From Actinopolymorpha rutila (GTDB lineage: Bacteria; Actinomycetota; Actinomycetes; Propionibacteriales; Actinopolymorphaceae), in assembly GCF_013407855.1 (NCBI RefSeq), contig NZ_JACBZH010000001.1:4216001-4280000 (forward strand): 64,000 bases of DNA, in the 5' to 3' direction. This document shows positions 41,756-61,788 of the stretch, piece by piece; positions within the stretch are counted from its first letter, which is position 1, and the number at the start of each line of letters is the position of its first letter. A program made the position numbers and the translations under genes. Under the pieces are notes generated by a model. It was not told the origin of the DNA and did no database searches. It saw only the letters and a list, made by a program, of their open reading frames with translations.

Positions 41756-41769
41756 GCGACCCCAGCGGA

Positions 41770-42042
41770 GGATCAATGGGACGCGCAGGCCCCGTCGTAC
41801 ATCCAGCCCTTCCCCTCGGCCAGCGGAGCGTTGCACGCGGGCGAGCCCGCACAACTGGACAGTCCGCCGTTGTCGGACGTGAAGATCACAAGTTTGTTGT
41901 CGGTTTTGCCCGGCGCGGTCGAGGGCGGTGTCCAGGAGGGGTCCGATGTTGCAGTCGAGGTTCTCGAACATCGCCGTAGGCGGGGTCGGACTGTACGACT
42001 TGCCGCTGGACATACTTGGTGGCGCTGATGCCACGGCAGCAT
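41770..42042 (-). pseudogene. Sulfatase internal fragment, partial copy of the 60364-61788 gene
   Basis: The minus strand retains LVIFTSDNGGLSSCAGSPAC and NAPLAEGKGWMYDG. The DNA is closely similar to about 60835-61096, inside the intact sulfatase gene. The fragment has frameshifts, lacks the CxPxR active site, and is inserted where the quinone reductase gene breaks off. It is a duplicated scrap of either this gene or a close paralogue. Confidence 0.75.
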
Positions 42043-42082
42043 CGACTCACGATCGACCGCCGCGGTGGCCGATCGTTAGGTT

Positions 42083-43420: not shown

Positions 43421-44320
43421 GGCTGGAGTTGCCCCGCTTTGACGGACAGGGTTGATGGCTTGGTCAGGCTATCTGCGTGGTGACCTGCTCGGCGTTGGCG
43501 TGTTCGTACTCGGTGGGTGTCAGGTAGCCGAGCGCGGAGTGAAGCCGGGTGCCGTTGTACCAGGCGATGTAGTCGACGATTGCGTGGCGGGCGTGGGCTC
43601 GGGTGGGCCAGGGCTGGGTGTCGAGGCATTCGCCTTTGAGTGAGGCGAAGAACGATTCGGCCAGGGCGTTGTCCCAGCACTGCCGGTCCGGCCGACCGAC
43701 AGCCTGACGTCGTAGTCGATGGCGAGGTCTGCGAAGGCGGCCGAGGTGTATTGACAGCCTCTGTCGGAGTGAAAGATCACCCCGGCGTGCGGGTCGCGGG
43801 CCGCGACGGCGTTGGTCAGGGCGTCGGCGACCAGGTTGGTGCGCAGGTGGTCGGCCATCGCGTGGCCGACGACCTTGCGGGAGGAGATGTCGATGACCGT
43901 GGCCAGGTACAGCCAGCCCTGCCACGTCGGCACGTAGGTGATGTCACCACACCAGCGGGCGTTGATCCTGGCGGCGTCGACGGTGAAGTCGCGGCGGATC
44001 AGGTCCGCCCGGGCCGCCGCATCCGGGTCAGGGATCGTGGTCTTCGTCCACCGCTTCGGCGTCCGCCCGGCCAGGTCAGCCTCGCGCATCAGCCGGGCCA
44101 CCCGCTTCCTGCCGTGCCGCCTGCCGCACCGGGCCAGTTCGGCGTGGATCCGCGGGGCGCCGTATCGGCCCTTGGAGGTGGCGTGCAGCTGGCTGATCTG
44201 CTCGGTCAGTGCGACGTCTTCACGCGCTCGAGCGGAGGGCCGGCCGGTGCGGTGGGTGTAGTAGGCGGCACGGGAGACCTCCAGCAACTCACACGCCCGT
44301 TTGACGTTGTGGTCGCCGAC
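43421..44320 (-). mobile_element. IS3-family insertion sequence, truncated
   Basis: A partial IS3-like element containing only orfB. Its outer end is probably near 43421-43445, where GGAGTTGCCCCGC and TTTGACGGACAG resemble an IS3 terminal repeat. The other end is cut at about 44320, where AAA-ATPase sequence begins. orfA and the second terminal repeat are missing and no target duplication was found, so it is immobile on its own. Confidence 0.7.
43464..44316 (-). pseudogene. IS3-family transposase OrfB, frameshifted
   Basis: The minus strand encodes the OrfB core: KRACELLEVSRAAYY, the HTH_21 region SKGRYGAPRIHAELARCGRR, and an rve integrase core with Asp in RWCGDITYVPT and Asp in GVIFHSDRGCQYTS. 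One base is missing near 43680, so the third part, CWDNALAESFFASLKGECLD with the catalytic Glu, continues in another frame to TGA at 43464. OrfA is absent. Active transposase cannot be made from this copy. Confidence 0.85.
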
Positions 44321-45408: not shown

Positions 45409-45439
45409 TTACCGCACGCTGCTGACCGCGTTCGGCGCC

Positions 45440-45900
45440 GACCGTGCATTCCACCGGGCGTGCCATCCTGGCCCCGGGCACCGTACCGCGCTACGTCGGC
45501 TGGCGCGGGCTGATCCCGGAGAACGATCTGCCACCGCAACTGTGGTCGGTGTTCGACGACACCATCAGCTACTGCGTGATGCGCTCGAGGCGCTGCCACA
45601 TCGTCATCTACCCGGTGCCCGGCGCCGACGGTGAGGCGCGCCGGGCACCCGGCGGATCAACTTCGTCTGGTACTGGAACGTGCCCGAGGGTCCCGAGCTG
45701 GTCGACCTGTTCACCGACTCCGACGGGATGTACGGCCAGGCACGGCACCGGCCGGGCACGTCGCGCAGCGCCACATCAACCGGATGCGGGCCGACGCACA
45801 GTCGCTGATGGCGCCGCAGGTCGCGGACCTGGTCTGCGCGGCCCGACGACGACCTGCGCGGCATCTATGATCTTGACCACGATCGCGTCAATGAAGATGG
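45440..45900 (+). pseudogene. FAD-dependent monooxygenase fragments
   Basis: Pieces of a 2,6-dihydroxypyridine-hydroxylase-like flavoprotein occur in three frames: VPRYVGWRGLIPENDLPPQL with WSVFDDTISYCVM and HIVIYPVPGADGE, then RINFVWYWNVPEGPELVDLF, then INRMRADAQSLMAPQVADLV and DDLRGIYDLD. The FAD-binding N-terminus and the C-terminal GD motif are gone. It is a multiply frameshifted remnant. Confidence 0.65.
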
Positions 45901-46032
45901 GCGTCTGGGCCGGCACCCTGCATCCCTGCTCTCGTTGGCAGGCGATGGCGGGGGAAGGCCCCGTTGTTGGACCCTCCCCCACCCAGGTGCCATCAGGTCA
46001 CCTCGTGCCTGCGTGCACCTGGCCGAGCTTGG

Positions 46033-46863
46033 TTACCACTTGCACTGTCCTTTAAGCTTCGCGGCGGTGTTGGGTGTGCCGACGAAGGGACTCTGGTTGC
46101 CGAAGCAGGACAGTTTCCCGCCGGCAACGTTGTTCTGCACGGTCTTGGAGCCTTTACCGGCGTTGTCGATGATCTGAATGTTCCCGCCGACAAGGTTGTT
46201 GAGGACGTTGAACAGGTCCCTCTTTTTGGTGTGGTTGTCGGTCGCCGTGAGGTTCCCCCCGACGACGTTCCCCCCACACTCGAGACCGGGGTCTCCGACC
46301 GCGATGAAGCCGGTGTTGCGCTGCAACGAGGTGCTGCCTCCGATTCGGTTGTTACACAGGAGGTCCTCGACAAAAGCGTCTGGTGCGGGGCGGCCTTTCT
46401 GCATCAGCACACTGCCCCCGATCTGGTTGTCCTCGGCTTGCAGCACGGCGTGGGCGTAACCGACCAGGTTCCCCCCGATCCTGCTGTTGCTGGCACCCAG
46501 AATCGCGTCCTTCTTGACGGTGACGTTTCCGGCCACTGCCGAGTTGACCAGGATGCAGATCTTGCCTCGCGGCACCGTGACGCTCTGAACGTCCACACCG
46601 TCCAACACCTGGTTCTTGCACTTCACATGGCCGTAGTTGCCCGAGCCGTTCAGCTGCAATCGCAACTCCTGCCCGTGGGTTCGTTGCTGGATCATCGTCC
46701 GCAGCTGGCCGAGCTGTCCGTCCACGCTGTGCGAGTGGTCGCGAGCCTGGTCGGTGCTGTCTCCGGCGTAGCCCGGCGACACCGGCAGCGCGACTGCGAT
46801 CAGAGAGCTCGCGGCCAGCGCGAGCGCCCTGGTCGTGCGCGTTCTGCGTTTGGTTTTCCGCAT
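46033..46863 (-). CDS. Secreted repeat protein of unknown function
   Basis: A 276-residue exported protein. A basic N-terminus (MRKTKRRTRTTRALALAASS) and hydrophobic core end in PVSPGYAGDS, a likely signal-peptidase site near residue 33. The mature part contains recurring Asn/Gly turns, for example NSRIGGNLVGYA, DNQIGGSVLM, NNRIGGSTSLQ, GNVVGGNLTATDN and NNLVGGNIQIIDN. They recur every 20-30 residues, which suggests a right-handed beta-helix or solenoid. Six cysteines in the mature part may form disulfides. No enzyme motif was recognised. It is flanked by scrap DNA but itself looks intact. Confidence 0.7.
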   Translation of the reverse strand: MRKTKRRTRTTRALALAASSLIAVALPVSPGYAGDSTDQARDHSHSVDGQLGQLRTMIQQRTHGQELRLQLNGSGNYGHVKCKNQVLDGVDVQSVTVPRGKICILVNSAVAGNVTVKKDAILGASNSRIGGNLVGYAHAVLQAEDNQIGGSVLMQKGRPAPDAFVEDLLCNNRIGGSTSLQRNTGFIAVGDPGLECGGNVVGGNLTATDNHTKKRDLFNVLNNLVGGNIQIIDNAGKGSKTVQNNVAGGKLSCFGNQSPFVGTPNTAAKLKGQCKW

Positions 46864-47130
46864 GAGTGTTGCCCCCTCTCAACACCAGCGGGCCCCAATG
46901 AGGAATCCTGCCCGCCGTGTGGAGCGCATTGCCCCCATGAGCATCCCGCCCAGCGACACCCACGGAACACGGTTGACCGAAACGCCGACATCACGGCGGA
47001 CCGAGTACCACCTACTGACACACCACCGTCAAGCGCCTACCTGGGCAGCGCACAAATCGCGGAAGTCATCGACGACGTGCAGGAAGTTTGTACAGCAGAA
47101 CGACATGCTGGTACCAACCGTCCAGGTGCG

Positions 47131-47520
47131 TCAGAGGTCGTACGCCGTCGGATGGCTCGGTTGGTAAACCATGATGTCGTCGGCCCCAGGCACCTGCATC
47201 ATCGTGGCGAGGCCGAAGCCGCGGTCCTCGATGCCGCCGCTGAACCTCGCCCCCTTCGACTCCAGCTCCGCCCTCGTGCGCTCCACGTCGTCGCAGACGA
47301 GCGAGACCAAGTGGTGACGTGGGGAGGACCAGGACTCTCCGTCCGACCGCTTGCCGGCGGTGGGATGTACTCCCAGTTCGCTCGGACCGGTCTTGAAGAT
47401 CAGCCACTCCCGTCCGGACTCTTCGTGCACGACGCTCGACCAGCCAAGCACGTCACGAAAGAACGACCGAGTGGCCGAAGCGTCGTCGGAGTAGATGAGC
47501 GCGTGAACACCAGTGATCAT
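47131..47520 (-). CDS. VOC family protein
   Basis: A 129-residue glyoxalase-fold protein: N-terminal VHALIYSDDASATRSFFRDV followed by LGWSSV, a central HHLVSLVCDDVERTRAELES unit and a C-terminus with FGLATMMQVPGADDIMVYQP. The first metal-ligand position is a histidine, while the last strand ends VYQP without the usual Glu. It may be a binding protein rather than an enzyme. It is followed downstream by scrap DNA. Confidence 0.82.
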   Translation of the reverse strand: MITGVHALIYSDDASATRSFFRDVLGWSSVVHEESGREWLIFKTGPSELGVHPTAGKRSDGESWSSPRHHLVSLVCDDVERTRAELESKGARFSGGIEDRGFGLATMMQVPGADDIMVYQPSHPTAYDL

Positions 47521-47683
47521 GCCGCCAGCGTATGCATCTCGTTGTCAGAGTGAATGGCGGAAAGAGACCCTATCGCGAATCTGACCCAAGGTCGCACATC
47601 AGCTCGCTGCGTGTGATTCTTCCAATGCGTCGAGGACGGCATGGCTTTCCACCGCGCGGCCGCTACCAGCGCCGGCCATCATC

Positions 47684-47819
47684 CAGCGGCCATCGCCAGA
47701 CGCAGGCCAAGCCCGACGAACGACACAGCGAACCCCGGCGAACCGACACGGTGAACACCACGCCGGTGCCCGGAGTCAGGATGACCATGAGCGCAGTCAG
47801 GCAGAATTCGATGCTCATA
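47684..47819 (-). pseudogene. LysE-family exporter with internal deletion
   Basis: The minus strand begins MSIEFCLTALMVILTPGTGV, the start of LysE-type amino-acid exporters. About eight residues later it shifts to GFAVSFVGLGLRLAMAAG, which matches the last helix of the same family, and stops. Everything between (about 150 residues) is deleted. It lies divergent to a mocR-like fragment, the usual gene partner. Confidence 0.65.
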
Positions 47820-47846
47820 CCTCGACGGTGATGCCAGGATGGTCCC

Positions 47847-48085
47847 GTGCCGAGGGCCAAAACGCGCACGATGATTCGCGCCATCGTCGAGCGGTTACCC
47901 GGTGCGACCGTGCACGGCACTACCGCCGGCCTGCACGTGACCATGACTTTCGCCAACCTGAGTGTGTCGGACGTCGAGATCGCGAGGGCCTGCCTCGCCG
48001 CGCGCGGCCGGGGATCGCCGCGATCGCCGCAGTCGTCCACAGGTACACGACCAAGCCGGTACGTCGACGACAGGACACGACCTGA
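47847..48085 (+). pseudogene. MocR/GntR-aminotransferase regulator, C-terminal fragment
   Basis: After GTG 47847 the frame reads MIRAIVERLPGATVHGTTAG, then LHVTMTFANLSVSDVEIARA and a frameshift. It matches the end of the aminotransferase-like domain of MocR regulators; the DNA-binding and PLP-binding parts are absent. It is divergent to the lysE remnant, so the pair looks like a decayed exporter/regulator unit. Confidence 0.5.
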
Positions 48086-48086
48086 C

Positions 48087-49850
48087 TCACCAACCAGAGT
48101 GGTGTCTGCCCCCGACACCAGCTGGACCGGTCCCCCCGCCGGCCCGTTCCTGCGGCGGCGACAGCCCTCGGGCCACTGTGAGTCCCAGGAGTTCGGCGAA
48201 CAGCGGCGACGTTGCGGCGACCTGCTCGTGGTCGCCGACAGTTGCGGTCACACCGTCCAGCACGAGCAGTCGCCGGGCGCGCAGGGCCGAACTGATCCGG
48301 TGGGCGATCACGATCAGGGTGCCACCGCGGCGGGCGAACGCCACCTCGGCGCGACGCTCGGCGACCGGATCGAGGTGACAGGTCGCCTCGTCCAGTACGA
48401 CGATGGGCGCGGGTGAGAGATAGGCCCGCACGAGTGCGATGAGCTGCCGTTCACCGGCGGACAGGTCTACGGCCACCAAGGTTGCCGCGTAGCCACCCAA
48501 CCTCGCGATGAGGGCATCCGCGCCCACCGCACGAGCAGCAAAGTCCAACTCTTCGGTCGTGGCCGAAGGCCTCAGGTAGTCAAGGTTCGCCCGCACTGTC
48601 CCGCTGAAGACGTACGCCTCCTGGGGAATGAGCACACGACAGGCGGGGAGCAGGTCGGGCACGATGTCGCCCACTGGCGCGCCACCGACCAGGATGTCAC
48701 CGGACGAAGGCCGATGCAGGCCGGACAGCAGGTTCGCCAACGTGGACTTGCCGATACCGCTCGGCCCGATGATCGCCAGGTGATCGCCTTCCGGAATGAC
48801 GAGTGAAAGGTCACGAAGCACCGGTTCCGAATGTGGACCGTACGCGAACGTGACGTTCTGCAGGCAGAGGTCGTACCCCCTGGGAGGCACGTCGGCGTGC
48901 GGAAGCGGCCTCGGTGGCATCGACACGTCGAGGATGCGGGCGAGTGTGACGACGAACCGCAGTCCGCTGTCGCCGAGACCGGCCATCGCCGTGCGCAGCG
49001 CCGTCTGCAAACCGAAAAGGACGTACGTCAGGCCACCGATGATCTCGCCTACGGTGAGGCCTCGATCGGCGAGCCTCGGCGCCGCGACCAGCACTACAAC
49101 GAGTGGAAGCCAACCGCCGACGGCAAAGCAGAGGGTCCGCAGCGCGGAGACCCAGGCGAGTGCCTGTTCGGCCGCCGCTTGTTCGGCGATCGGCCGCGCG
49201 GCCGTCGAAGCCGCATGGTCTTCGGCACCGCATGCGACGAGGTCGCGGACTCCCGCGAGCACCGCTCCGGCAGCGGCCGCGACTCGCTCGTCGGCAAGGA
49301 TGGCCTGGCGGTGGCGGCTCGCCGACAGCCCGAGCGTGGCCAAGAACAAGGCGAATCCGAGCAGGAACGGCGGGACGACGAGGAGGGTGATGATCGGCGC
49401 CAGGGTCTGCAATCCGGCAACGACACCGAGTGCTGTGAAGACGAAGCCACGTAGCACCATGATCAGACCCGCGTAGGCGTCTCGGACGATCTCGACCTGG
49501 CGGGACAGCCGTGCGACCGCTCCGTCATCGGTTGCTCCTGCCACGCCGCGCCGAAGCGCATCGTCGACGACCCTTCGCACGAGCCGGTCGCGGAACGGCT
49601 CCACCAGCGCGCCGAGGTGGTGGAAGACCTGACGCGAGCCGATCGCACCGACGACCGACGCGGCCATGAACCCAGCCAGCCACGCCACTCCCACCAGCGG
49701 ATTCCCGGCCCGGAAGCCGGTGTCGACAGATCTTGCAATCGCAAGGCCGGACACGGCCGTCGGCAGGGCCTCGGGAAGTGACCAGGCGGCCAGAGCGAGC
49801 ATTGGACCACGCGGCAGCCCTTTCAGGGCGAAGCTCAGCTCGCGTTTCAT
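48087..49850 (-). CDS. Lanthipeptide ABC exporter, second half-transporter (RamB-like)
   Basis: A 587-residue half-transporter: six-helix membrane domain (about 1-320) plus ATPase with Walker A IIGPSGIGKSTLANLL, signature DLSAGERQLIALVRAYL, Walker B IVVLDEATCHLD and the switch His in IVIAHRIS. The catalytic Glu is present. No C39 peptidase domain is attached. ATG 49850 overlaps the stop of the partner gene as ATGA, so the longer frame above it is not used. It is the last gene of the lanthipeptide operon and exports the modified peptide as a heterodimer with the 49847-51502 product. Confidence 0.87.
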   Translation of the reverse strand: MKRELSFALKGLPRGPMLALAAWSLPEALPTAVSGLAIARSVDTGFRAGNPLVGVAWLAGFMAASVVGAIGSRQVFHHLGALVEPFRDRLVRRVVDDALRRGVAGATDDGAVARLSRQVEIVRDAYAGLIMVLRGFVFTALGVVAGLQTLAPIITLLVVPPFLLGFALFLATLGLSASRHRQAILADERVAAAAGAVLAGVRDLVACGAEDHAASTAARPIAEQAAAEQALAWVSALRTLCFAVGGWLPLVVVLVAAPRLADRGLTVGEIIGGLTYVLFGLQTALRTAMAGLGDSGLRFVVTLARILDVSMPPRPLPHADVPPRGYDLCLQNVTFAYGPHSEPVLRDLSLVIPEGDHLAIIGPSGIGKSTLANLLSGLHRPSSGDILVGGAPVGDIVPDLLPACRVLIPQEAYVFSGTVRANLDYLRPSATTEELDFAARAVGADALIARLGGYAATLVAVDLSAGERQLIALVRAYLSPAPIVVLDEATCHLDPVAERRAEVAFARRGGTLIVIAHRISSALRARRLLVLDGVTATVGDHEQVAATSPLFAELLGLTVARGLSPPQERAGGGTGPAGVGGRHHSGW

Positions 49851-51502
49851 GCGAAGACCTCCCGGTAGGCCGGCTGTTCCCACAGCCTGCGGTGCGGTCC
49901 GAAGCCCCGTATCCGACCGTCCTCCAACCAGAGCACGAGATCCGAGCGTGCCGCTGTGTCCACCCGGTGTGTGACGATCAGTCGTGTCGGACGGTTCGCC
50001 GTCGATGCGGTAAGCGTCTGGGTGATCTGCAGCTCCGTCACCACGTCGAGGCTGGAGGTGGCGTCGTCCAGCACGAGCAGGCGTTTTGCGTGCCACGCTC
50101 GGGCGAGGCCGATCCGCTGCCGCTCACCACCCGACATCGGCGCGTCGACCAGCGCGGTGTCGTACCCCTCCGGGAGTCTGCTCACGAACGTGTGCGCGTT
50201 CGTGGCCCGAGCGGCGGCGATCGTCTGCTCGCGCGGACGTCCGAGCCCGATCGCGTCGCCGACGGTTTCGCCCACCAGGACGGGCCGTTCGAACGCACAG
50301 GCCACTGCTGTACGCAGGACGTCACGGCGGATGTCCGACAGACGTACGCCGTCGAGCCGAACCTCGCCCTCTGTCGGATCGGTCAACCGGGCGGCGACTG
50401 CCGCCAGTATGGACTTACCAGATCCAGAGCGACCAACGACCGCAGTCGTCACACCGCCGGGAAGTACCACGTCGATGCCGTCCAGCAGGACGCGATCCCG
50501 GCTGCGTACGCCGACCTGCCGGAACTCCAGTTGTCCTAGTCCGTCGGGCAGCCTCCGGTTTCCGTAGCGCACGGCGTCGACCGTGAGGACCTCGGCGAGC
50601 CGCCGTATGCCCGCACGTGCCCGAGCGAGTTCGCCGAACACCGAGGTCAGGCTGCCGAGCCCGGCGCCGATCATTGCGTACTGGCTCGCGGCGAAGTAGG
50701 CGCCCGGCGTGATCCGGTGGGCAGCGAGTGCCAGTCCACCGGCCACGAGCACCGCGACGAGGGCGAGAGGCCCGACGACCGCGGCCTGCGCGGCCGAACG
50801 CGCCAGGACCCGCCAGGTGTTGATGCCGTGTGCGTTCAGTTCGGGCAGTGGTTCGAGCACCCGCTGTCTCTCGCGCGCGAGCGTCCCCGCGGCCGCGATC
50901 GTCCTTGCCCCGGCGAGCGACTCTGTGAGCCGAGCCGCGATCTGGCCCTGTGTCTGCTGATAGGAGGTGAAGACCACGGCCGTCCCACGAGTGAACGCCC
51001 GCAACACCAACACGACCAAGCAGATCCCACCGACAAACGCCGCGGCGACCCACACGTCGATCAGAGCCAGAAGGACAAGGCTGCCCAGCGGAGGCACGAC
51101 GGCCGCACCGATCGTGATGGCGCTCGGTCCGGCGTGCGCCGCATCCACGGCGTTGCTGGATACCCGGCTGACCAGATCGCCGACGTCGAAGTGGCGGTCC
51201 TTCGTGGCGGAGGGGCCGATACCAAGTAGGTGGCGGATCAGACGCTCCCGTAGCCACGCCGTCGTGCTCGCGACGCAGGCCTTGCCGGCGAACGCATCGA
51301 TCAGGTCGCAGATCACGCCGAACGCAACCAGACCGCCGGCGAGGAGAAGCCAGCGGTTAGTTGCTGAGTCGGCGACAACACCGTCGACTGCCCGGCCGAG
51401 CACGGTAGGGAGCGCGAGAGTCGCCAGCGCCCCGACCAGCGAGGAGATGCCGATCAGCGGGAGCCATCCGCCGCCGCGGCGAGCGATAGAACCGAACGTC
51501 AT
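49847..51502 (-). CDS. Lanthipeptide ABC exporter, first half-transporter (RamA-like)
   Basis: A 551-residue half-transporter with six helices and an ATPase domain: Walker A VVGRSGSGKSILAAVAARL, signature PMSGGERQRIGLARAWHAK, and Walker B LLVLDDATSSLD, in which the usual catalytic Glu is Asp. The H-loop His is kept in LIVTHRVDTA. The partner at 48087-49850 has a normal Glu, so the pair is asymmetric, as in known heterodimeric exporters. ATG 51502 has GGAGGGAG about eight bases upstream and is preferred to the in-frame start 33 bases earlier. No leader-peptidase domain is present. Confidence 0.87.
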   Translation of the reverse strand: MTFGSIARRGGGWLPLIGISSLVGALATLALPTVLGRAVDGVVADSATNRWLLLAGGLVAFGVICDLIDAFAGKACVASTTAWLRERLIRHLLGIGPSATKDRHFDVGDLVSRVSSNAVDAAHAGPSAITIGAAVVPPLGSLVLLALIDVWVAAAFVGGICLVVLVLRAFTRGTAVVFTSYQQTQGQIAARLTESLAGARTIAAAGTLARERQRVLEPLPELNAHGINTWRVLARSAAQAAVVGPLALVAVLVAGGLALAAHRITPGAYFAASQYAMIGAGLGSLTSVFGELARARAGIRRLAEVLTVDAVRYGNRRLPDGLGQLEFRQVGVRSRDRVLLDGIDVVLPGGVTTAVVGRSGSGKSILAAVAARLTDPTEGEVRLDGVRLSDIRRDVLRTAVACAFERPVLVGETVGDAIGLGRPREQTIAAARATNAHTFVSRLPEGYDTALVDAPMSGGERQRIGLARAWHAKRLLVLDDATSSLDVVTELQITQTLTASTANRPTRLIVTHRVDTAARSDLVLWLEDGRIRGFGPHRRLWEQPAYREVFA

Positions 51503-51602
51503 CGTGACTGCTCCCTCCAGGCCTGCCAGTCGCACTTGAGTGGTGTGGCTACGTCACCGGTTTCAGCGAGCGCTGCTGTAGCGAGCGACGCGCAGACGCA
51601 TG

Positions 51603-51644
51603 GGCAGCGGCCCCGAGCAAGGTGCGATGCCCGGGACCGCTGCC
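51603..51644 (-). terminator. Intercistronic hairpin between precursor and exporter genes
   Basis: GGCAGCGGCCCCG pairs with CGGGACCGCTGCC (13 bp, one mismatch or G-U) around a loop of about 16 bases. It starts 18 bases after the precursor stop. There is no T-run, so it is more likely an attenuator or RNA-stability element than a full terminator. It could raise precursor mRNA over exporter mRNA. Confidence 0.6.
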
Positions 51645-51662
51645 TCAGTTCTCAGGTGACCG

Positions 51663-51815
51663 TCACTTGTGGCAGATCAGCACGCTGAGGCCGCTGGTAC
51701 CACCGCAGAGGGTGACGCTCAGGTTGCTTGGGCAGCTGTGGCCGGAGTAGCTGCTGCCGCCGAAGTTCATTTCCGGGGCGGGAGACGTCATGCCCTGGAG
51801 GTCGAGAAGTGCCAT
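51663..51815 (-). CDS. lanA: Class III lanthipeptide precursor with three Ser-x2-Ser-x3-Cys units
   Basis: A 50-residue peptide. The leader begins MALLDLQGM, where LLDLQ (residues 3-7) is the class III leader motif recognised by LanKC enzymes. The region TSPAPEMN (10-17) holds Pro12 and Pro14. The core carries three exact labionin-type patterns: Ser21/Ser24/Cys28, Ser30/Ser33/Cys37 and Ser41/Ser44/Cys48. The units are separated by one residue (Pro29) and by Gly38-Gly39-Thr40, and the peptide ends His-Lys. AAGGAG lies four bases before ATG. It sits between the synthetase and the exporter genes, the same place as ramS. SapB-type precursors have two such units; this one has three. Whether labionin or lanthionine forms cannot be read from the sequence. 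Confidence 0.9.
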   Translation of the reverse strand: MALLDLQGMTSPAPEMNFGGSSYSGHSCPSNLSVTLCGGTSGLSVLICHK

Positions 51816-51839
51816 GGGACTCCTTTGGGTTGAGGTTTT

Positions 51840-54446
51840 CTACAACCCCGCACCGGCTGGTGCGGGAACTCGTGGGGTGGTGGCCGGTCGAGCGGCGGTC
51901 GTGATGAGCGGCAACGTCACCGGTCGATCGTGGAGAGCGGCGCCGAGCGCAAGCAGAACGCCGGCCGTACCGGTCGCGAGATCCATCGAGAGGCGAAGCA
52001 ACGCCGTGCCGGGAAAGGCGATGCCGCCGCCATACGGGACGGCCGGGAGCGCAAGACCACTGACCTGCTTGGACACCAACGGATCCGCGGCAGGTGACGG
52101 CGACTGGCTGGCGAGGTAGAGCAAGATGCCTGCTCGTCCGGAGAAGAGACCTGGGAGGACGTAAAACTCGGCCTGTGCCGCCCGGGATATCCGGCTGCTG
52201 GCTTCGGCGAACTGGCTGTCGTGTCGGCGGGCGAGATACTCGTCGAGGACCAGCCCGATGCCGACGCTTCCGGAGTCGAGGTAGGGCATCGTTCGCCAGC
52301 CCTCGTTGACTTCCAGCACTCCGTTGTCTCGTACGACGCACCGCAGCAGATCCTGGCGCAACGCCACCGCAGCCTGGTCGAGGTAGCCGATGTCGCCAGT
52401 CTCGTCGTACACGCGGATGAGGAGCAACGCCGATCCTGCCTTGCCGCGCAGCAGCCCCGCAGGGGGGTTCCCTCCCCCACTGATCGGCGGTTCGTCACCT
52501 GGCGCCGGCTCGCCGACATCCGACCCGATCCGGTCGACCGTCAACTCGGCGGCGCGCAGCGCTGCCGTTCGAAGCGTCGGATCCCCTGTCCGCGCGGCGA
52601 AATGCATCAGGTTGAGGCCGACGCCGGCCAAGCCACTCGCGAGGTCTGGGCCGAGCGACTCCCAGTCGCCGGTGAGACAGCGGTCGACGGCATCGAGTGC
52701 CTCTTGCTCGTACCCGAGATGGTCGAGCACGAACGCGGCGCCGTGCAGGCCGTCGTAAAGTCCGGGCAGGGTGCTGCTCGGCACGTTCCGGACCTGGCGA
52801 ACGAACCAGTCCTCGTACTGCGGGAACCGGCCCGCGCCGGACGCCGAGAGGGCATACAGCACGCCGGCCGCACCATAGGCGAGGCCCAACCCTCCGAGCA
52901 CGAACTGCTCGATGTCGCCAGGGAACAACCGATCGTCGCGTCCTGGTGTCGCACTGGCGAGGATGGCGCGCACCAGAGCATTCCGAAGTTCGGGCCAGTG
53001 GCGCTCGTCCGGCTCGATGGCCAGGAGCGGTGCCGGCTCAGGTGCGATCAGTTGGAGAGCCTTCTGTACATAGGCCTCAGGTACGGGGAAGTGCGTGCGG
53101 ATGGCCTCCGCGAAGTGCTGAGCCTTGCCTCGGTGCAACCAGATCAGGCTGGTCATCGGGATGAAGAGCGCCAGCCGCAGACACGACAGGGCGTAACGGT
53201 CGACGTCGAACCCCGTGGTTCCTGGTGGAGCTGTGAAGCCCTGGTTGCCCAGGCCGGGCGGTGTCGGGTCGTCCACCGAGGCGGAGACCTCGTAGTCCAG
53301 CAATGCGATTGTCTGGTCGTCTCGCACCATGATGTTGAACAGGTGCAGGTCCCCGTAGACCACGCCGCGCTCGTGCACCGCGTCGATGGTGGTCTCGATC
53401 TGGTGGTAGATGTCGAGCGCCCAGTCGGTGTAGTCCTTGTACTCCCGGGGACCGGCTGCCGGGTCGATCAACGGGTACTGCTGGACGATCGCCTTGTTCA
53501 GCGGGACCGCGTCGACGTACTCCATTGCCAGGAAGCGATGTTCCCCCAACCAGAACAGGTCGCGCACCTTGGGAATCCCGGGTATCCCGGCGAGCCTTCG
53601 GAGCATGTCGTACTCGTGCTCGATCCGCGTTGTCGCATCGTGCCCGCGGCCGTCGAGGCCCGAGTGCGGACGGCCTTCCTTCAGGACGACCTGCTCGCCA
53701 GTGCGAGTGCACCTGCCGACATAGATTCCGCCACCGTTGGAGAAGTGCACGACGCGTTCGATCGTGTACGGGACGTCGGCCAGTGTGACCGCGTTGCGCG
53801 CTGCCAGGTGCGGCGCCAGGAACTCGGGCAGCCTTACCCAGTGCGGTACACGGAAGATGGGGTCACGGCTGTCGGGCACCAGCGCGCCGGTGTCGTCCTC
53901 GATTGCCGAGACCAGTTGGCCGTCGGCGGAGAAGTAACGCCGGTTGGCGAACGCGCCGTACCGAACGTAGAGCGGACCCCTGCCCCAGCGCAGATCGGTC
54001 AGGATGTAGGGGCTGGGCTCACCCTCGAGTAACTCGCCAAGCTCGACGAGGATCTTCTCACAGGCGGCGTCGTCGACGGGATAGATGGTGACGAGTTTCC
54101 CGCTGAAGCCGCGGGGGGCGTATTTCGACACCCTGGCCACGAGGGCGGCAGGCGAGCGTAGAAACTTGAACCGGATTCCACGGGGTACGCAGTAGTCCCA
54201 AACTGCATCGAGGATGCGCGGCGCGTTGTCCACGCATGCTGAGGCGTGGATCTTCCACCCCTGTGGCGGCAGAGCCGGGGCACCGTGCGAGCTGAACGTG
54301 AACCAGTCGTCCTGCTCATGACGCTGCCATTCCGCTGGGAGCTCCCGGTCAGCAGTCGAGAAGGACTCCCCCGCTGTCTCGCTGGAATGCATTGCGTCGT
54401 AGAACAAGGGGTCGGCGAAGCAGAACGTCTCGTACCCTTGATCCAT
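51840..54446 (-). CDS. lanKC: Class III lanthipeptide synthetase LanKC
   Basis: An 868-residue trifunctional enzyme. The N-terminus MDQGYETFCFADPLFYD is the typical LanKC start, followed by the phospho-Ser/Thr lyase region (to about 200). The kinase domain (about 230-480) has the glycine loop SNGGGIYVGR, Lys in VVLKEGRP (near 255), the catalytic loop VYGDLHLFNIM (near 365) and the metal-binding LLDYE (near 381). The C-terminal cyclase-like domain (about 520-868) has the GxxG turns of LanC but lacks the Cys-Cys-His zinc ligands, which marks class III rather than class IV. It phosphorylates, eliminates and cyclises the precursor encoded 24 bases downstream. ATG 54446 has GGAGG five bases upstream; a frame start 45 bases earlier is not used. 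Confidence 0.92.
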   Translation of the reverse strand: MDQGYETFCFADPLFYDAMHSSETAGESFSTADRELPAEWQRHEQDDWFTFSSHGAPALPPQGWKIHASACVDNAPRILDAVWDYCVPRGIRFKFLRSPAALVARVSKYAPRGFSGKLVTIYPVDDAACEKILVELGELLEGEPSPYILTDLRWGRGPLYVRYGAFANRRYFSADGQLVSAIEDDTGALVPDSRDPIFRVPHWVRLPEFLAPHLAARNAVTLADVPYTIERVVHFSNGGGIYVGRCTRTGEQVVLKEGRPHSGLDGRGHDATTRIEHEYDMLRRLAGIPGIPKVRDLFWLGEHRFLAMEYVDAVPLNKAIVQQYPLIDPAAGPREYKDYTDWALDIYHQIETTIDAVHERGVVYGDLHLFNIMVRDDQTIALLDYEVSASVDDPTPPGLGNQGFTAPPGTTGFDVDRYALSCLRLALFIPMTSLIWLHRGKAQHFAEAIRTHFPVPEAYVQKALQLIAPEPAPLLAIEPDERHWPELRNALVRAILASATPGRDDRLFPGDIEQFVLGGLGLAYGAAGVLYALSASGAGRFPQYEDWFVRQVRNVPSSTLPGLYDGLHGAAFVLDHLGYEQEALDAVDRCLTGDWESLGPDLASGLAGVGLNLMHFAARTGDPTLRTAALRAAELTVDRIGSDVGEPAPGDEPPISGGGNPPAGLLRGKAGSALLLIRVYDETGDIGYLDQAAVALRQDLLRCVVRDNGVLEVNEGWRTMPYLDSGSVGIGLVLDEYLARRHDSQFAEASSRISRAAQAEFYVLPGLFSGRAGILLYLASQSPSPAADPLVSKQVSGLALPAVPYGGGIAFPGTALLRLSMDLATGTAGVLLALGAALHDRPVTLPLITTAARPATTPRVPAPAGAGL

Positions 54447-55133
54447 GAAGTCCTCCGACGTGTCGCACTCAGAACCTTCGACTTCACACACATAGTGCGG
54501 ATCGGTACGCGGCGCTTCCAGTGATCAATGTCATCCGACGAGGTGAGGAATCCACTGCGGATCATGAATTTCTCACTCACCTGCCGATGGGCCCCGACGG
54601 CTGCGCCTTCCACAGGGCGAGATGAAGCTCACTGGGCCATCAGCGAGCTCCTGGAGTACAGACCCATCTCGCGATGGATCTGACTCATCTTGCGCGAGCC
54701 TGAGAGCGGGATCTTGACGGCAGCGTGTGCTGCCTGTAGTTCTCATGGCAGTTCCGCAATCTGCGGCGAGTCAGGACCAGATTAGCCATTGCTCCAGGTG
54801 CTGCGGCTCAAGAAGCTGTTGTCGGTGGCTGGGGTGTGAGGGATTGTCTTCCACGCCGGCGTCCCGTCGACTCCTGTCGGCCGGCTGCGCCTCATTACCC
54901 GCTGTCAGTCCCGCCCGATCGCCCACGTGGCCGCGAGACCGGGGTGTCAGGCCACTGCCGGTCGAAGTAGGGAATCTGGCCAGAGTGGACCGTAACCGAT
55001 TCCGAGGCGGATCGTTACTGGTCCAGGTCATACGAACGCAGAGGGTTGGATCAGGGGTGGGGCCCAGCGATCGCTGGGCGATGTGTGCGCTTGGGCATGC
55101 TGGTGATTCTGGACGTGCGTGGGGGGCGGCACA
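54447..55133. promoter_or_regulatory. Divergent control region of the lanthipeptide locus
   Basis: About 690 bases between lanKC and the RamR-like gene with no credible protein. It must hold the promoters of both units. The only clear element is the promoter/palindrome at 54714-54742 on the plus strand; no strong lanKC promoter could be fixed. Confidence 0.5.
54714..54742 (+). promoter_or_regulatory. Candidate promoter with palindrome in the spacer
   Basis: TTGACG (54714-54719), a 17-base spacer and TAGTTC (54737-54742). The spacer contains the perfect inverted repeat GGCAGC-GTGT-GCTGCC (54719-54734), placed where a repressor would block polymerase. The transcript would reach the RamR-like gene with a leader of about 390 bases. 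Confidence 0.4.
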
Positions 55134-55742
55134 GTGATTCGTGTGCTAATTGTTGGAGGCATCACGCTGGTAAGGGGCGCACTCGTCGCGCTTCTGGCTC
55201 ACGAGGGGGACATCGAGGTCGTCGCGGAGTTGCCGCGAGGTGAAGACGTTTTACCGACGGCGCGAAGGGTCAAGCCCGACGTTGCGGTGATCGACATCGA
55301 TCCGCCGAATATGGACGGCCTCGCCGCCGCGCGCAAACTGCGTGAGTTCCTGCCGACGTGCGAGACGTTGATCCTCACCGGCATAGGCACGCCACGCGCA
55401 CTTCGGCAGGCGCTGGATGCCAAGGCTCGTGGCTTCGTGGTGATGGATGAAACGCTGGCAGAACATTTCGCGGACTGCATCCGGCAGGTGTCCAGCGGCG
55501 AGTTCGTCGTCGACACCAAGCTCGCGGTCAACGCCCTGTACACCGCAGGCGACCTGCTCACGTCTCGTGAACATGACGTCCTGAACCTGGCCGCGGAAGG
55601 CTCCTCCGTCTGCGAGATCGCCCGCCGGCTCCACCTCGCTCCCGGCACAGTGCGCAACTACCTTTCCGTGATCATAAACAAGCTCCACGCCCGCAACCGC
55701 CTCGACGCCGTCCGCATCGCCCGAGGAAAGGGCTGGATCTGA
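55134..55742 (+). CDS. ramR: RamR-like LuxR-family response regulator
   Basis: A 202-residue regulator with a receiver domain (1 to about 118) and a LuxR/NarL helix-turn-helix (about 140-198: LTSREHDVLNLAAEGSSVCE, IARRLHLAPGTVRNYLSVII). The phosphoacceptor Asp54 is kept in VIDIDPP. However, the acidic pair is replaced by Gly8-Gly9 (VLIVGGITLV) and the conserved Lys by Met104, so normal phosphorylation is unlikely. Codon 40 (55251-55253) is TTA, a rare codon in such genomes. GTG 55134 is chosen over the GTG 15 bases earlier. Position and type match RamR/AmfR, activators of SapB-like operons. It probably activates the divergent lanKC operon. Confidence 0.82.
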   Translation: MIRVLIVGGITLVRGALVALLAHEGDIEVVAELPRGEDVLPTARRVKPDVAVIDIDPPNMDGLAAARKLREFLPTCETLILTGIGTPRALRQALDAKARGFVVMDETLAEHFADCIRQVSSGEFVVDTKLAVNALYTAGDLLTSREHDVLNLAAEGSSVCEIARRLHLAPGTVRNYLSVIINKLHARNRLDAVRIARGKGWI

Positions 55743-55764
55743 GAAGGGCTTGGTCTGATCTGCC

Positions 55765-57654
55765 ATGACTGATCCTCAAACCCACCGACGGCTTGGACGT
55801 ACGGACGGACCCGGCCTCCCGGTTCCCCTCATCCCGCGTGCTGTCCTCTATGGAAGCCCCTACCGCAGCACGCCGGAGCTTTCCCCGGACGGAACCAGAA
55901 TCGGCTACCTGGCACCGGTCGAAGGCGTCCTCAATGTCTGGATCGGACCGCTCGACGAGTCGAGCCCGGCCCGGCCGGTCACGACCGACCGCGGCAAGGG
56001 CATTCAGATGTTCGGCTTCTGCCACGATGACAGGACACTCATCTATCTGCAGGATCACGACGGCGACGAGAACTGGCGGCTGTACGCCCTCGACCTCGAA
56101 ACCGGTGAGACGCGCTGTGTCACGCCTGCCGCCACGCAGGCCAGGCTGCTTGCCCACACACATCGGCATCCGACGACGCTGCTGATCGCACTCAACAAGG
56201 ACAACCCCAAACTGCACGATGTGTGGGGGTACGACCTGCGGACCGGACAGCTGTCGCTCGTCGAACACAACCCGGGCTTCGCGTCGTGGCTCGTCGACTC
56301 CGACCTCAGCGTGCGCGGCGGGACCACAATGAGCGAGGACGGCGGCATAGTCATCCACCTCCGCACGGACGGCACCGGTGGGTTCCGACCGTGGCGTGAG
56401 CTTCCCACCGCGGAGGGTGCGGCCGGTGGTGACGTCCTCGGCTTCACCAGGGACGGGCGGTTGCTACTACTCACGTCGTACGACTCGAATGCCGCCAAGC
56501 TGATCTCCGTCGACACCGACACCGGCGCGGAGCAGGTGCTCGCGGCGGACGCCGAGGTCGACATCACCCGGGTCGTGCTGCATCCGGAGACGCTTGAGCC
56601 GCAGGCGGTGGTGGTCACCAGGGATCGTGAGGAGTGGACGTTCCTGGACCCGGATTTCGAGGCTGCGTTCGCACGGATGCGTGCGACGATCGACGTCGAC
56701 GGAGAGTTGGGCATCGGCCGGTCGGTAGGTGACGACGGCACCTGGCTCGTGTCGGTGACACCTTCGGACGGACCGCTGCGCTACTACGTCCACGATCGCA
56801 CGACCGCCCGCACGAGATTGCTCTTTACCGTCCAACCCGACTTGGAGCACTTCCGGTTGGCACGGGTCGAGCCGTACGACATCGTCAGCCGGGACGGCCT
56901 TCGGGTGCACGGGTACGTAACCTTCCCGCCAGGAGTGCCCCGACATGATCAGCCCGCGGTTCTCTACGTGCACGGTGGACCGTGGTCGCGGGACTTCTGG
57001 ACGTACAACCCGGACGTGCAGTGGCTTGCCAACCGCGGCTATGTCTGCGTACAGGTCAACTTCCGGGGCTCGAAGGGCTACGGAAAGGCATTCTGCAGTG
57101 CCGGCGACAAGGAATGGGCCGGCCGGATGCACGACGACCTGGTCGACGCGCTGGACTACTGCGTTTCCGAGGGCTGGGTCGATCCGGAGCGGGTCGCCAT
57201 CATGGGCAGTTCCTACGGTGGCTATGCCGCGCTGGTGGGCGCCGCGTTCACACCTGACCTGTTCTGCTGTGCGATCGACCTCTGCGGTCCCTCGAACCTG
57301 CTGACCTTGGTGGAGTCGATACCGCCGTACTGGAGACCCATGGTCGCGTTCATGCACGCCAAGATCGGTGACCCGGTGGTGGAGCGCGACCTACTCTGGT
57401 CGCGGTCGCCGCTCTGCCGGATCAACGCGATCCGCATCCCGGTGCTCATCGGGCACGGCGCCAACGACCCCAGAGTGAAGCAGCGCGAGGCGGAACAGAT
57501 CGTCGAGGCGTTGCGGGCGAGGGGTGTGCCGCATGAGTACCTTCTCTTTCCTGATGAGGGACACGGCCTGGTCGACCCGATGAACCGCGAACGGTTCTAC
57601 GCCGCTGCCGAACGCTTCCTCGCCGAACACCTCGGCGGCCGCGCCGAAGGCTGA
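55765..57654 (+). CDS. S9-family prolyl-oligopeptidase-type serine peptidase
   Basis: A 629-residue protein with an N-terminal beta-propeller (about 20-370, with repeated blades such as ELSPDGTRIGYLAPVEGVLN) and a C-terminal alpha/beta-hydrolase domain. The catalytic triad is complete: Ser483 in MGSSYGGYAALVG, Asp568 in GANDPRVKQ and His600 in FPDEGHGL. There is no signal peptide, so it acts in the cytoplasm. It follows the RamR-like gene by 22 bases and is probably cotranscribed. Some class III lanthipeptide clusters use a prolyl oligopeptidase to remove the leader (FlaP in flavipeptin), and this precursor has Pro12/Pro14 before the core, so that role is inferred. A general housekeeping peptidase is the alternative. 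Confidence 0.85.
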   Translation: MTDPQTHRRLGRTDGPGLPVPLIPRAVLYGSPYRSTPELSPDGTRIGYLAPVEGVLNVWIGPLDESSPARPVTTDRGKGIQMFGFCHDDRTLIYLQDHDGDENWRLYALDLETGETRCVTPAATQARLLAHTHRHPTTLLIALNKDNPKLHDVWGYDLRTGQLSLVEHNPGFASWLVDSDLSVRGGTTMSEDGGIVIHLRTDGTGGFRPWRELPTAEGAAGGDVLGFTRDGRLLLLTSYDSNAAKLISVDTDTGAEQVLAADAEVDITRVVLHPETLEPQAVVVTRDREEWTFLDPDFEAAFARMRATIDVDGELGIGRSVGDDGTWLVSVTPSDGPLRYYVHDRTTARTRLLFTVQPDLEHFRLARVEPYDIVSRDGLRVHGYVTFPPGVPRHDQPAVLYVHGGPWSRDFWTYNPDVQWLANRGYVCVQVNFRGSKGYGKAFCSAGDKEWAGRMHDDLVDALDYCVSEGWVDPERVAIMGSSYGGYAALVGAAFTPDLFCCAIDLCGPSNLLTLVESIPPYWRPMVAFMHAKIGDPVVERDLLWSRSPLCRINAIRIPVLIGHGANDPRVKQREAEQIVEALRARGVPHEYLLFPDEGHGLVDPMNRERFYAAAERFLAEHLGGRAEG

Positions 57655-57831
57655 GTGGAAGCGCGAAGGTGCCGGTGCTCAGCCCCCGCGCCGCACCGTC
57701 GTCACAGCCTGTCAGGCTCACCGTGTGCTGCACGGCCAAAGGCGGGCTGGGGACCGTGGCCGACGATGCAGTAGCGGTCGGCGATTACCCGAGGCTAGTG
57801 TCGTGCGGGCGAGATTCCGGAGGTGCGTGCC

Positions 57832-58060
57832 ATGAGCACTCGCGATCGCATCGCTCCGGGCCTGACTGCGGCGGGAAGGTCGAGTTGAGAGTCCTCGGAG
57901 CCGCCGAGCACAACCTGCGCAACGTCGACGTGACCTTCGGGCCCGGGTTGACTGCCGTCGTCGGCGTGTCGGGGAAGTCTTCGCTGGCGTTCGATGTCGT
58001 CTACAAGGAGGCGCGGCGGCGGTTCGTCCAGACCCTCGCGTTCGGGCGGGGGCCGCTACT
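57832..58060 (+). pseudogene. UvrA-like fragment with damaged Walker A
   Basis: After ATG 57832 and a frame change, the sequence reads RVLGAAEHNLRNVDVTFGPG and LTAVVGVSGKSSLAFD, then EARRRFVQTLA. This is the N-terminal ATP-binding region of a UvrA-like protein. Walker A lacks two residues (GVSG-KSS instead of GVSGSGKSS), and the rest of the gene is missing. It is not a copy of the UvrA-like gene at 30732-33224. Confidence 0.65.
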
Positions 58061-60363: not shown

Positions 60364-61788
60364 TCAGCCGGGGAGGTCGTCGTAGGCGCTGACGGGATTT
60401 GGTGCGGGGATCCTCGCCTCGACCTCTCGGAGCCAGTGCTCGAGCGTGGCATCCAGTCTTGCTGCCGTGGCGGGGTTGGTGCCTGCCAGGTCGCGGGTCT
60501 CGGAGATGTCCTCGGCGAGGTTGTAGAGCTCGACGTGGTTGTCCTCGAAGAACCTGACCAGCTTCCAGTCACCCTCGCGAACCGCGGCGCCGGGGGTGCC
60601 TCCCTGGTTGCCGTAGTGCGGGTAGTGCCAGAAGATCGGCCTGCTCTGGGACTGACCGGACATCAGTAATGGCAGGAAGGTGTGGCCGTCCGCTTCCCCG
60701 GCCCGCGAGTACGGAGCCTGCGGGATCGGGAGTACGGCGGCCGCCTCCAGCAGGGTCGGGTAGAAGTCCGGACTCGTGACCACGTCGGGCAGGGTCGTGT
60801 TCGGATCGACCACGCCGGGCCAACGGATGAGCAACGGGACCCGCAGGCCGCCGTCGTACATCCAGCCCTTCCCTTCGGCCAGCGGAGCGTTGCAGGTGGG
60901 CGAGCCCGCACAACTGGACAGTCCGCCGTTGTCGGACGTGAAGATCACAATGGTGTTGTCGGCTTTGCCGGTACGGTCGAGGGCGTCCAGCAGCCGTCCG
61001 ATGTTGGTGTCCAGATTCTCGATCATCGCGGCGTAGCCGGGGTCGGACTGCACCACTCGCCGCTGGACGTACTCGTGGCGCTGGTGCCAGGTAGGCATCG
61101 GCTCGCCGGTCTTGATGGCATCTACCTGGTCGAGTCCGAGTGCCCTCGCCTTCTCCTCGTACTTCCTCACCAACTGCTCGGGAGCCTGGATGGGAGTGTG
61201 GACGGCGTAGTGCCACAGGTTGAGGAAGAACGGCTGGTCGCCTGCGTTCTCGACGAGCGCGACCGCCTCGTCGGTGAGCCGGTCGGTGAGGTACTCACCG
61301 GGCGGTCCGTCCTCGATGGCCGGTATGCCGTACGGGCTCATGTAGCTCGGTGGGTGTCCGAGTTGGCAACCTGCCACGTTGACATCGAATCCGTGCCGGT
61401 CGGGCCAGGTGCGTCGCTCACCGAGATGCCACTTGCCCACATGCCAGGTCTGGTAGCTGCCACCATCGCGGAGCGCTCGGGCGAGTGAGTACTCGTCGAG
61501 GGGTAGCTCGTGGAAGTACGGGACGTCGCGCAGACGCCCGACGGCGTGCCCGCCGATCCACTGGGTCACACCCACCCGGGCGGGATACTTGCCGGTCATG
61601 ATGCTGGCACGGGTTGGTGAGCACACCGGTGCCGCGGCGTAGGCGTTGGTGAACCGCGCACCGGCCGCCGCCAGGCGGTCCAGGTGGGGTGTCTCGTAGA
61701 ACGTCGACCCGTAGCAGCCGAGGTCTGCCCAGCCAAGGTCGTCGATCAGGACGAACACGATGTTCGGCCGCGGGCACGCTTCGGTCAT
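60364..61788 (-). CDS. Sulfatase (formylglycine-dependent)
   Basis: A 474-residue type I sulfatase. The N-terminal RPNIVFVLIDDLGWADLGCY gives the metal-binding Asp16-Asp17. The active-site signature PVCSPTRASIMTGKYPARVG has Cys56, which is converted to formylglycine. IVIFTSDNGGLSSC supplies the later metal-binding Asp-Asn. No signal peptide is evident, so a cytoplasmic enzyme acting on imported sulfated sugars is likely. ATG 61788 is four bases from the upstream permease stop, with AAGGAG seven bases before it. It is the last gene of a sugar-importer operon. A partial copy lies at 41770-42042. Confidence 0.92.
   Translation of the reverse strand: MTEACPRPNIVFVLIDDLGWADLGCYGSTFYETPHLDRLAAAGARFTNAYAAAPVCSPTRASIMTGKYPARVGVTQWIGGHAVGRLRDVPYFHELPLDEYSLARALRDGGSYQTWHVGKWHLGERRTWPDRHGFDVNVAGCQLGHPPSYMSPYGIPAIEDGPPGEYLTDRLTDEAVALVENAGDQPFFLNLWHYAVHTPIQAPEQLVRKYEEKARALGLDQVDAIKTGEPMPTWHQRHEYVQRRVVQSDPGYAAMIENLDTNIGRLLDALDRTGKADNTIVIFTSDNGGLSSCAGSPTCNAPLAEGKGWMYDGGLRVPLLIRWPGVVDPNTTLPDVVTSPDFYPTLLEAAAVLPIPQAPYSRAGEADGHTFLPLLMSGQSQSRPIFWHYPHYGNQGGTPGAAVREGDWKLVRFFEDNHVELYNLAEDISETRDLAGTNPATAARLDATLEHWLREVEARIPAPNPVSAYDDLPG

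What the first reader, a model, noticed from the sequence alone, without database searches (positions are those of the whole stretch)
48087..57654. Complete class III lanthipeptide locus of SapB/Ram type with an added S9 peptidase
Seen: LanKC, a 50-residue precursor and two ABC half-exporters in ramC-ramS-ramA-ramB order, with a RamR-like regulator and S9 peptidase on the opposite strand. Known: ram/amf clusters make morphogenetic surfactant peptides and usually lack a dedicated peptidase; some other class III clusters encode prolyl oligopeptidases. Inference: this is a hybrid layout that makes a self-contained product, possibly a surface-active peptide.
Basis: partly seen in the sequence, partly recalled or inferred. 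Interest (0 to 1): 0.9.

Follow-up and report, generated by a model that had tools for sequence, protein, structure and literature searches.

The report
Class III lanthipeptide cluster, swapped peptidase
This is a genuine gene cluster for making a small ring-bearing (lanthionine/labionin) peptide, of the SapB/flavipeptin kind; its relatives all carry one type of leader-cutting peptidase, but here that gene is missing and a different peptidase, a diverged copy of a household gene, sits next to the regulator.

Summary
In detail: window 48087-57654 holds LanKC, a 50-residue SapB/AmfS-family precursor and two ABC half-exporters (minus strand), then a LuxR-type response regulator and an S9 peptidase (plus strand), in a 6.95-Mb Actinopolymorpha genome. 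The 'hybrid' interpretation is only partly right. Ram-type clusters with an S9 peptidase are the rule in this lineage: the window falls in a fully supported clade of 28 clusters, and the other 27 all carry the known flavipeptin peptidase FlaP (S9A prolyl oligopeptidase) between precursor and transporters. The window alone lacks it, and its genome holds no FlaP ortholog elsewhere. The S9 beside the regulator is not FlaP. It is an acylaminoacyl-peptidase-type (S9C-like) protein, a fast-evolving sister of a peptidase found in every sampled Actinopolymorphaceae genome. None of its 80 best homologues kept from 84,980 species shows a LanKC in the flank held. The precursor has three S-x2-S-x3-C motifs; the FlaP-type relatives have two. 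Best reading: a flavipeptin-lineage cluster that lost FlaP and probably recruited a duplicated S9C peptidase for maturation. The cluster is near certain; the peptidase's role is an inference (about 50%). New variant of a known kind; surface activity was not tested.

The parts
51840..54446 (-). LanKC, class III lanthionine synthetase (868 aa from ATG): RamC_N lyase domain, kinase, cyclase-like domain; one TTA codon (139)
   Evidence: NF038151 1056.5 bits (cut-off 575), RamC_N 257.8 bits; kinase motifs YGDLHLFN and LLDYE, no Cys-His pair in the cyclase part, 134 of 139 columns invariant in relatives kept; TTA
51663..51815 (-). RamS-like precursor MALLDLQGMTSPAPEMNFGGSSYSGHSCPSNLSVTLCGGTSGLSVLICHK: LLDLQ leader motif; core with three S-x2-S-x3-C motifs (SSYSGHSC, SNLSVTLC, SGLSVLIC)
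51603..51644 (-). 17-bp-arm stem-loop after the precursor gene, likely attenuator between precursor and exporter genes; a comparable stem-loop follows the precursor in all five relatives folded
   Evidence: (z -3.2)
49847..51502 (-). ABC half-exporter 1 (RamA-like)
   Evidence: 58-69% identical to ABC1 of FlaP-bearing clusters in the same clade
48087..49850 (-). ABC half-exporter 2 (RamB-like), 4-nt overlap with ABC1
55134..55742 (+). RamR-like NarL/LuxR-type regulator; receiver acidic pair ED replaced by GG and the KD motif by MD, so probably phosphorylation-independent; TTA codon 40
   Evidence: 60% identical to the regulator upstream of LanKC in same-family genome G007
55765..57654 (+). S9 peptidase of acylaminoacyl-peptidase (S9C-like) type, 629 aa; motifs GSSYGGY (481), GANDPRV (565), DEGHGL (597); diverged paralogue of the family-wide S9 gene
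54851..54966 (.). relic of an insertion-sequence transposase N-terminus (IS481-like by its look) in the LanKC-regulator gap
   Evidence: 82% identical to three other copies in the genome; the copy read encodes a 363-aa frame that looks like a DDE transposase; not searched against an IS library
57880..58051 (+). truncated UvrA-like gene remnant; right edge of the accessory stretch
   Evidence: 87% match to the start of a >1100-aa frame in G004

Best explanation
The locus is a class III lanthipeptide cluster of the flavipeptin lineage within the SapB/AmfS superfamily. LanKC binds the LLDLQ leader, phosphorylates and eliminates core Ser/Thr, and closes up to three lanthionine or labionin rings (S21/S24/C28, S30/S33/C37, S41/S44/C48); the two ABC half-transporters export the product; the RamR-like regulator drives expression. 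The ancestral FlaP (S9A) gene between precursor and exporters has been lost. A duplicated, fast-evolving S9C-like peptidase, placed right behind the regulator, has probably taken over leader removal or trimming. Shown: gene content, family membership, FlaP absence, the origin of the S9 copy, the third motif. Inferred: ring chemistry, co-transcription of regulator and S9, and the S9's substrate.
For: Family scores. Tree of LanKC+ABC1+ABC2: window in a 100/100 clade of 28 clusters, 27 with FlaP. The RamS-ABC1 gap is 160 nt, versus room for a ~660-aa FlaP gene in relatives. Only ~30%-identical household prolyl oligopeptidases in the own genome, shared by the genus. Window S9 is sister (SH-aLRT 92) to the Actinopolymorphaceae S9 clade with a 0.55 branch; the own genome keeps its normal copy. 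It departs at 15 columns invariant in the other 17 sequences (others 0-7) yet keeps the triad motifs. S9 starts 22 nt after the regulator on the same strand. At the flanking conserved sites in G004/G002, window 45409-57885 has no match, so cluster and S9 lie in one accessory stretch. Precedents: FlaP and NorP are S9 enzymes of class III clusters (PMC10885120, PMC10206099).
Against: No second cluster pairs this S9 subfamily with a LanKC, so no comparative support for a functional link. S9C-like enzymes usually act on short peptides (own knowledge). Many class III clusters rely on unlinked proteases (PMC8960859), and the genome has two M1-family genes. The S9 is on the other strand with its regulator, not in the biosynthetic operon. 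The long branch could also reflect relaxed constraint, and SH-aLRT 92 is below the tool's star level.
Confidence: 0.5

Rival explanations
1. The cluster is as described, but the leader is removed by an unlinked host protease (an M1 AplP-like enzyme or another), and the S9 is an unrelated neighbour.
For: Most characterised class III clusters lack a protease; AplP-like enzymes are often unclustered (PMC10885120, PMC8960859). The own genome has two M1 hits. No other S9C-LanKC pair found.
Against: The whole sister clade keeps a dedicated S9 enzyme. With about 12 S9-type matches in 6.95 Mb, one lying directly at the cluster edge has a chance of about 1% (my estimate). The copy is diverged but has its catalytic motifs.
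Confidence: 0.35
2. The S9 degrades or inactivates the peptide (self-protection or signal turnover) rather than maturing it, under the RamR-like regulator.
For: Fold and sequence neighbours include acylaminoacyl peptidases, puromycin hydrolases and S9 carboxypeptidases, enzymes that process small peptides or inactivate drugs; placed with the regulator, not the biosynthetic operon.
Against: No direct evidence; ring-bearing peptides resist exopeptidases in general (own knowledge).
Confidence: 0.1
3. Original reading: a SapB/Ram cluster with an added S9 peptidase, a hybrid of two cluster types.
For: Gene content and order.
Against: The lineage already had an S9 (FlaP) in 27 of 27 clade relatives; so this is loss plus replacement, not addition to a peptidase-free cluster.
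Confidence: 0.05

Closest known systems
Flavipeptin cluster (FlaA, FlaKC, FlaP; Kribbella flavida) and FlaP-bearing relatives in Jiangella and others
   Same: Same clade by LanKC+exporter tree; MALLDLQ leader; -PSNLS-xxx-C ring; two ABC half-exporters; RamR-like regulator
   Different: FlaP absent; third ring motif SGLSVLIC added; leader TSPAP in place of LETP; regulator upstream and divergent rather than convergent downstream
SapB (ramCSAB/ramR) and AmfS clusters of Streptomyces
   Same: Gene order LanKC-precursor-ABC-ABC plus RamR-like regulator; precursor scores in SapB/AmfS family models
   Different: Clusters with SapB-like precursors form a separate clade with two motifs and no S9 gene
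Stackepeptin (Stackebrandtia nassauensis)
   Same: Multiplied ring motifs in the core (from the title of Jungmann et al. 2016, cited in PMC10885120)
   Different: Sequence not compared here
Acylaminoacyl peptidase of S9C type (PDB 5l8s)
   Same: Best sequence and structure match of the S9 (profile E 4.7e-75; TM about 0.8)
   Different: About 22% identical; no known link to a lanthipeptide cluster

Membership tests
Class III lanthipeptide cluster | LanKC with lyase, kinase and cyclase domains, cyclase without zinc ligands | tested here: met
   NF038151 1056 bits against 364 for LanL; no Cys-His pair in the cyclase part
Class III lanthipeptide cluster | Precursor with LxLQ leader motif and S-x2-S-xn-C core | tested here: met
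   LLDLQ and three motifs
Class III lanthipeptide cluster | Lanthionine or labionin in the product | not testable with these tools
   Needs mass spectrometry
SapB/AmfS (ram) morphogen | Precursor in SapB/AmfS family models | tested here: met
   NF033212 48.2 bits, cut-off 25; Pfam RamS 50.1, cut-off 24.3
SapB/AmfS (ram) morphogen | Groups with Streptomyces ram/amf-type clusters | tested here: not met
   Window falls with FlaP-bearing clusters, apart from the f22 clusters whose precursors are SapB-like
SapB/AmfS (ram) morphogen | Surface activity or aerial-growth function | not testable with these tools
   Needs culture and peptide
Flavipeptin (FlaP) cluster | LanKC and exporters in the FlaP-bearing clade | tested here: met
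   100/100 support
Flavipeptin (FlaP) cluster | FlaP (S9A, PF02897 + PF00326) in the cluster | tested here: not met
   Window S9 lacks PF02897, 27% identical to a FlaP-like protein; no ortholog in the genome
S9C acylaminoacyl-peptidase type | Closest to S9C structures, catalytic Ser/Asp/His motifs present | tested here: met
Class III leader peptidase | Cuts the modified precursor | not testable with these tools
   Biochemistry needed

The most novel reading that the evidence does not exclude
A lanthipeptide leader peptidase of the S9C acylaminoacyl-peptidase type, recruited by duplication of a household gene to replace the lost S9A FlaP, together with a change from a two-ring to a three-ring core and a regulator that works without phosphorylation.
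Probability: 0.4. Interest if true: 0.55.

Novelty: new variant of a known kind. Interest (0 to 1): 0.4.

Why it matters
How class III lanthipeptides lose their leaders is still open for many clusters. Here a near-natural experiment (27 relatives with FlaP, one without but with a different S9 at its edge) makes one question testable with two purified proteins: can a household S9C peptidase be turned into a RiPP leader peptidase? The three-motif core is also a candidate for a larger flavipeptin-like product.

Tried and rejected
LanKC as a single query in genome contigs found nothing; the genome search was used instead. Tested whether the S9 is FlaP: rejected. Tested whether FlaP sits elsewhere in the genome: no. 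Tested whether other S9C genes sit near LanKC: none in the 80 best loci, several with short flanks. Rfam: no match in the window. Promoter/terminator consensus scan: nothing above chance. Pfam on the neighbours 45964-47553(+) and 46033-46863(-): no family. PADLOC: nothing on the S9.

Full report
Observation. The six genes are present as described. LanKC (51840-54446, minus) scores 1056 bits against the class III synthetase model (cut-off 575) and carries the RamC N-terminal, kinase and LanC-like domains. The true start is probably the ATG at 54446, giving MDQGYETFCFADPLFYD. The precursor (51663-51815, minus) is MALLDLQGMTSPAPEMNFGGSSYSGHSCPSNLSVTLCGGTSGLSVLICHK and scores above the curated cut-offs of both the Pfam RamS and NCBIfam SapB/AmfS models. 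Two ABC half-exporters follow, overlapping by 4 nt. On the plus strand lie a NarL/LuxR-type response regulator and, 22 nt after its stop, the S9 peptidase.

Organism. The window is bases 4216001-4280000 of a single 6.95-Mb contig. Family f23 contains Jiangella and Phytoactinopolyspora (same reasoning). Family f3, genus g5, is taken to be Kribbella from genome size and FlaA-like precursors; that name is my inference.

Relatives. LanKC relatives reach only about 53% identity. In every relative examined from g5 except the divergent clusters L081 and L082 (and the short match L058), in the three Jiangella genomes and in same-family G007, the order is LanKC, precursor, FlaP-like S9A, ABC1, ABC2, plus a regulator. 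The precursor in these clusters is of the type MALLDLQGLETPGYGHGGHHHGGSTLTVLGCGSQRPSNLSLLLCH. FlaP of flavipeptin is known to cut after a leader proline only once the rings are installed, and FlaP-like enzymes with FlaA homologues are reported from Kribbella, Streptomyces, Amycolatopsis and Jiangella (PMC10885120; PMC8960859). So a ram-type layout with an S9 peptidase is already known.

What is unusual. In a tree of LanKC+ABC1+ABC2 the window lies in a clade of 28 rows with 100/100 support; the other 27 rows all have FlaP and the window does not. Its place inside that clade is unresolved. The precursor-to-ABC1 gap is 160 nt and holds a stem-loop with 17-nt arms; comparable stem-loops follow the precursor in the five relatives folded. 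A search with G007's FlaP finds only prolyl oligopeptidases of about 30% full-length identity in the own genome, as in all genus members, whereas G007 has a second FlaP-like gene at 51%.

The S9 at 55765-57654. It lacks the S9A propeller domain that FlaP-like proteins have, and is 27% identical to one. Its best structural relative by sequence and by predicted fold is a cold-adapted acylaminoacyl peptidase, 5l8s (profile E 4.7e-75; AlphaFold model pLDDT 86, Foldseek rank 1). Every genus or family genome searched holds a homologue at 57-61%, including genomes without a ram-type LanKC, and so does the own genome at another place (2420019-2421905). These normal copies are 70-96% identical to one another. 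In the tree the window copy is their sister with SH-aLRT 92 and a branch of 0.55. It departs from 15 columns that are invariant in the other 17 sequences aligned, against 0 to 7 for each of those, some from other phyla, but the Ser, Asp and His motifs are present. This fits an old duplicate that changed its job; relaxed constraint is not excluded. Of the 526 relatives found in 84,980 species the best 80 were kept, and no LanKC was seen in the DNA held around them, so the pairing is so far unique. Some of those loci have short flanks.

Surroundings. Window DNA up to 45409 and from 57885 matches G004 or G002, while 45409 to 57885 does not. The cluster, regulator and S9 thus lie in one accessory stretch, bounded on the right by a truncated UvrA-like gene that is long in G004; to its left lies a tRNA-Gln at 43928-44018. 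The LanKC-regulator gap holds a relic of an insertion-sequence transposase present in three other copies. In G007 a regulator 60% identical to the window's lies upstream of LanKC on the same strand, so an inversion of the regulator-S9 block near this relic is possible (inference). The window regulator has lost the acidic pair and the lysine of the receiver, which G007's retains, and so may work without phosphorylation (inference). LanKC and the regulator each carry one TTA codon.

The core. Three S-x2-S-x3-C motifs are present. By eye, the first two line up with the two rings of the FlaA type and the third (SGLSVLIC) is extra. Two or three such motifs are described as common in known class III peptides (PMC8960859), so three rings are not new in kind.

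Mechanism and odds. That this is a class III lanthipeptide cluster is near certain (about 0.95). That the S9 takes part in maturation in place of FlaP is my preferred reading at about 0.5. The main rival is an unlinked protease such as an M1 enzyme; two M1-family genes are in the genome.

Noticed in passing
54851-54966: Relic of an insertion-sequence transposase N-terminus (IS481-like by look) between LanKC and the regulator; three other copies in the genome and several per related genome.
   Followed up: partly
57880-58051: Remnant of a UvrA-like gene whose counterpart in G004 is a frame of more than 1100 aa; marks a deletion or insertion junction about 230 bp after the S9 gene.
   Followed up: partly
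L071 (G003:C1:3518500-3537500), 7879-8159: Actinopolymorpha pittospori carries a labyrinthopeptin-like cluster with two precursors (SNWSLWECCSQGSLFNCC and SNGSVWECCSTGSWVPFTCGC cores).
   Followed up: no
43928-44018: tRNA-Gln (ttg) gene just left of a stretch that differs between same-genus genomes; possible integration hot spot.
   Followed up: no
41762-42048 and 60820-61104: Two direct repeats of about 290 bp, 86% identical, flanking the cluster at a distance.
   Followed up: no
L236 (G391:C2:80500-100400) and L234 (G370:C30:161500-181400): Class III clusters with two or three tandem precursor genes of near-identical cores.
   Followed up: no
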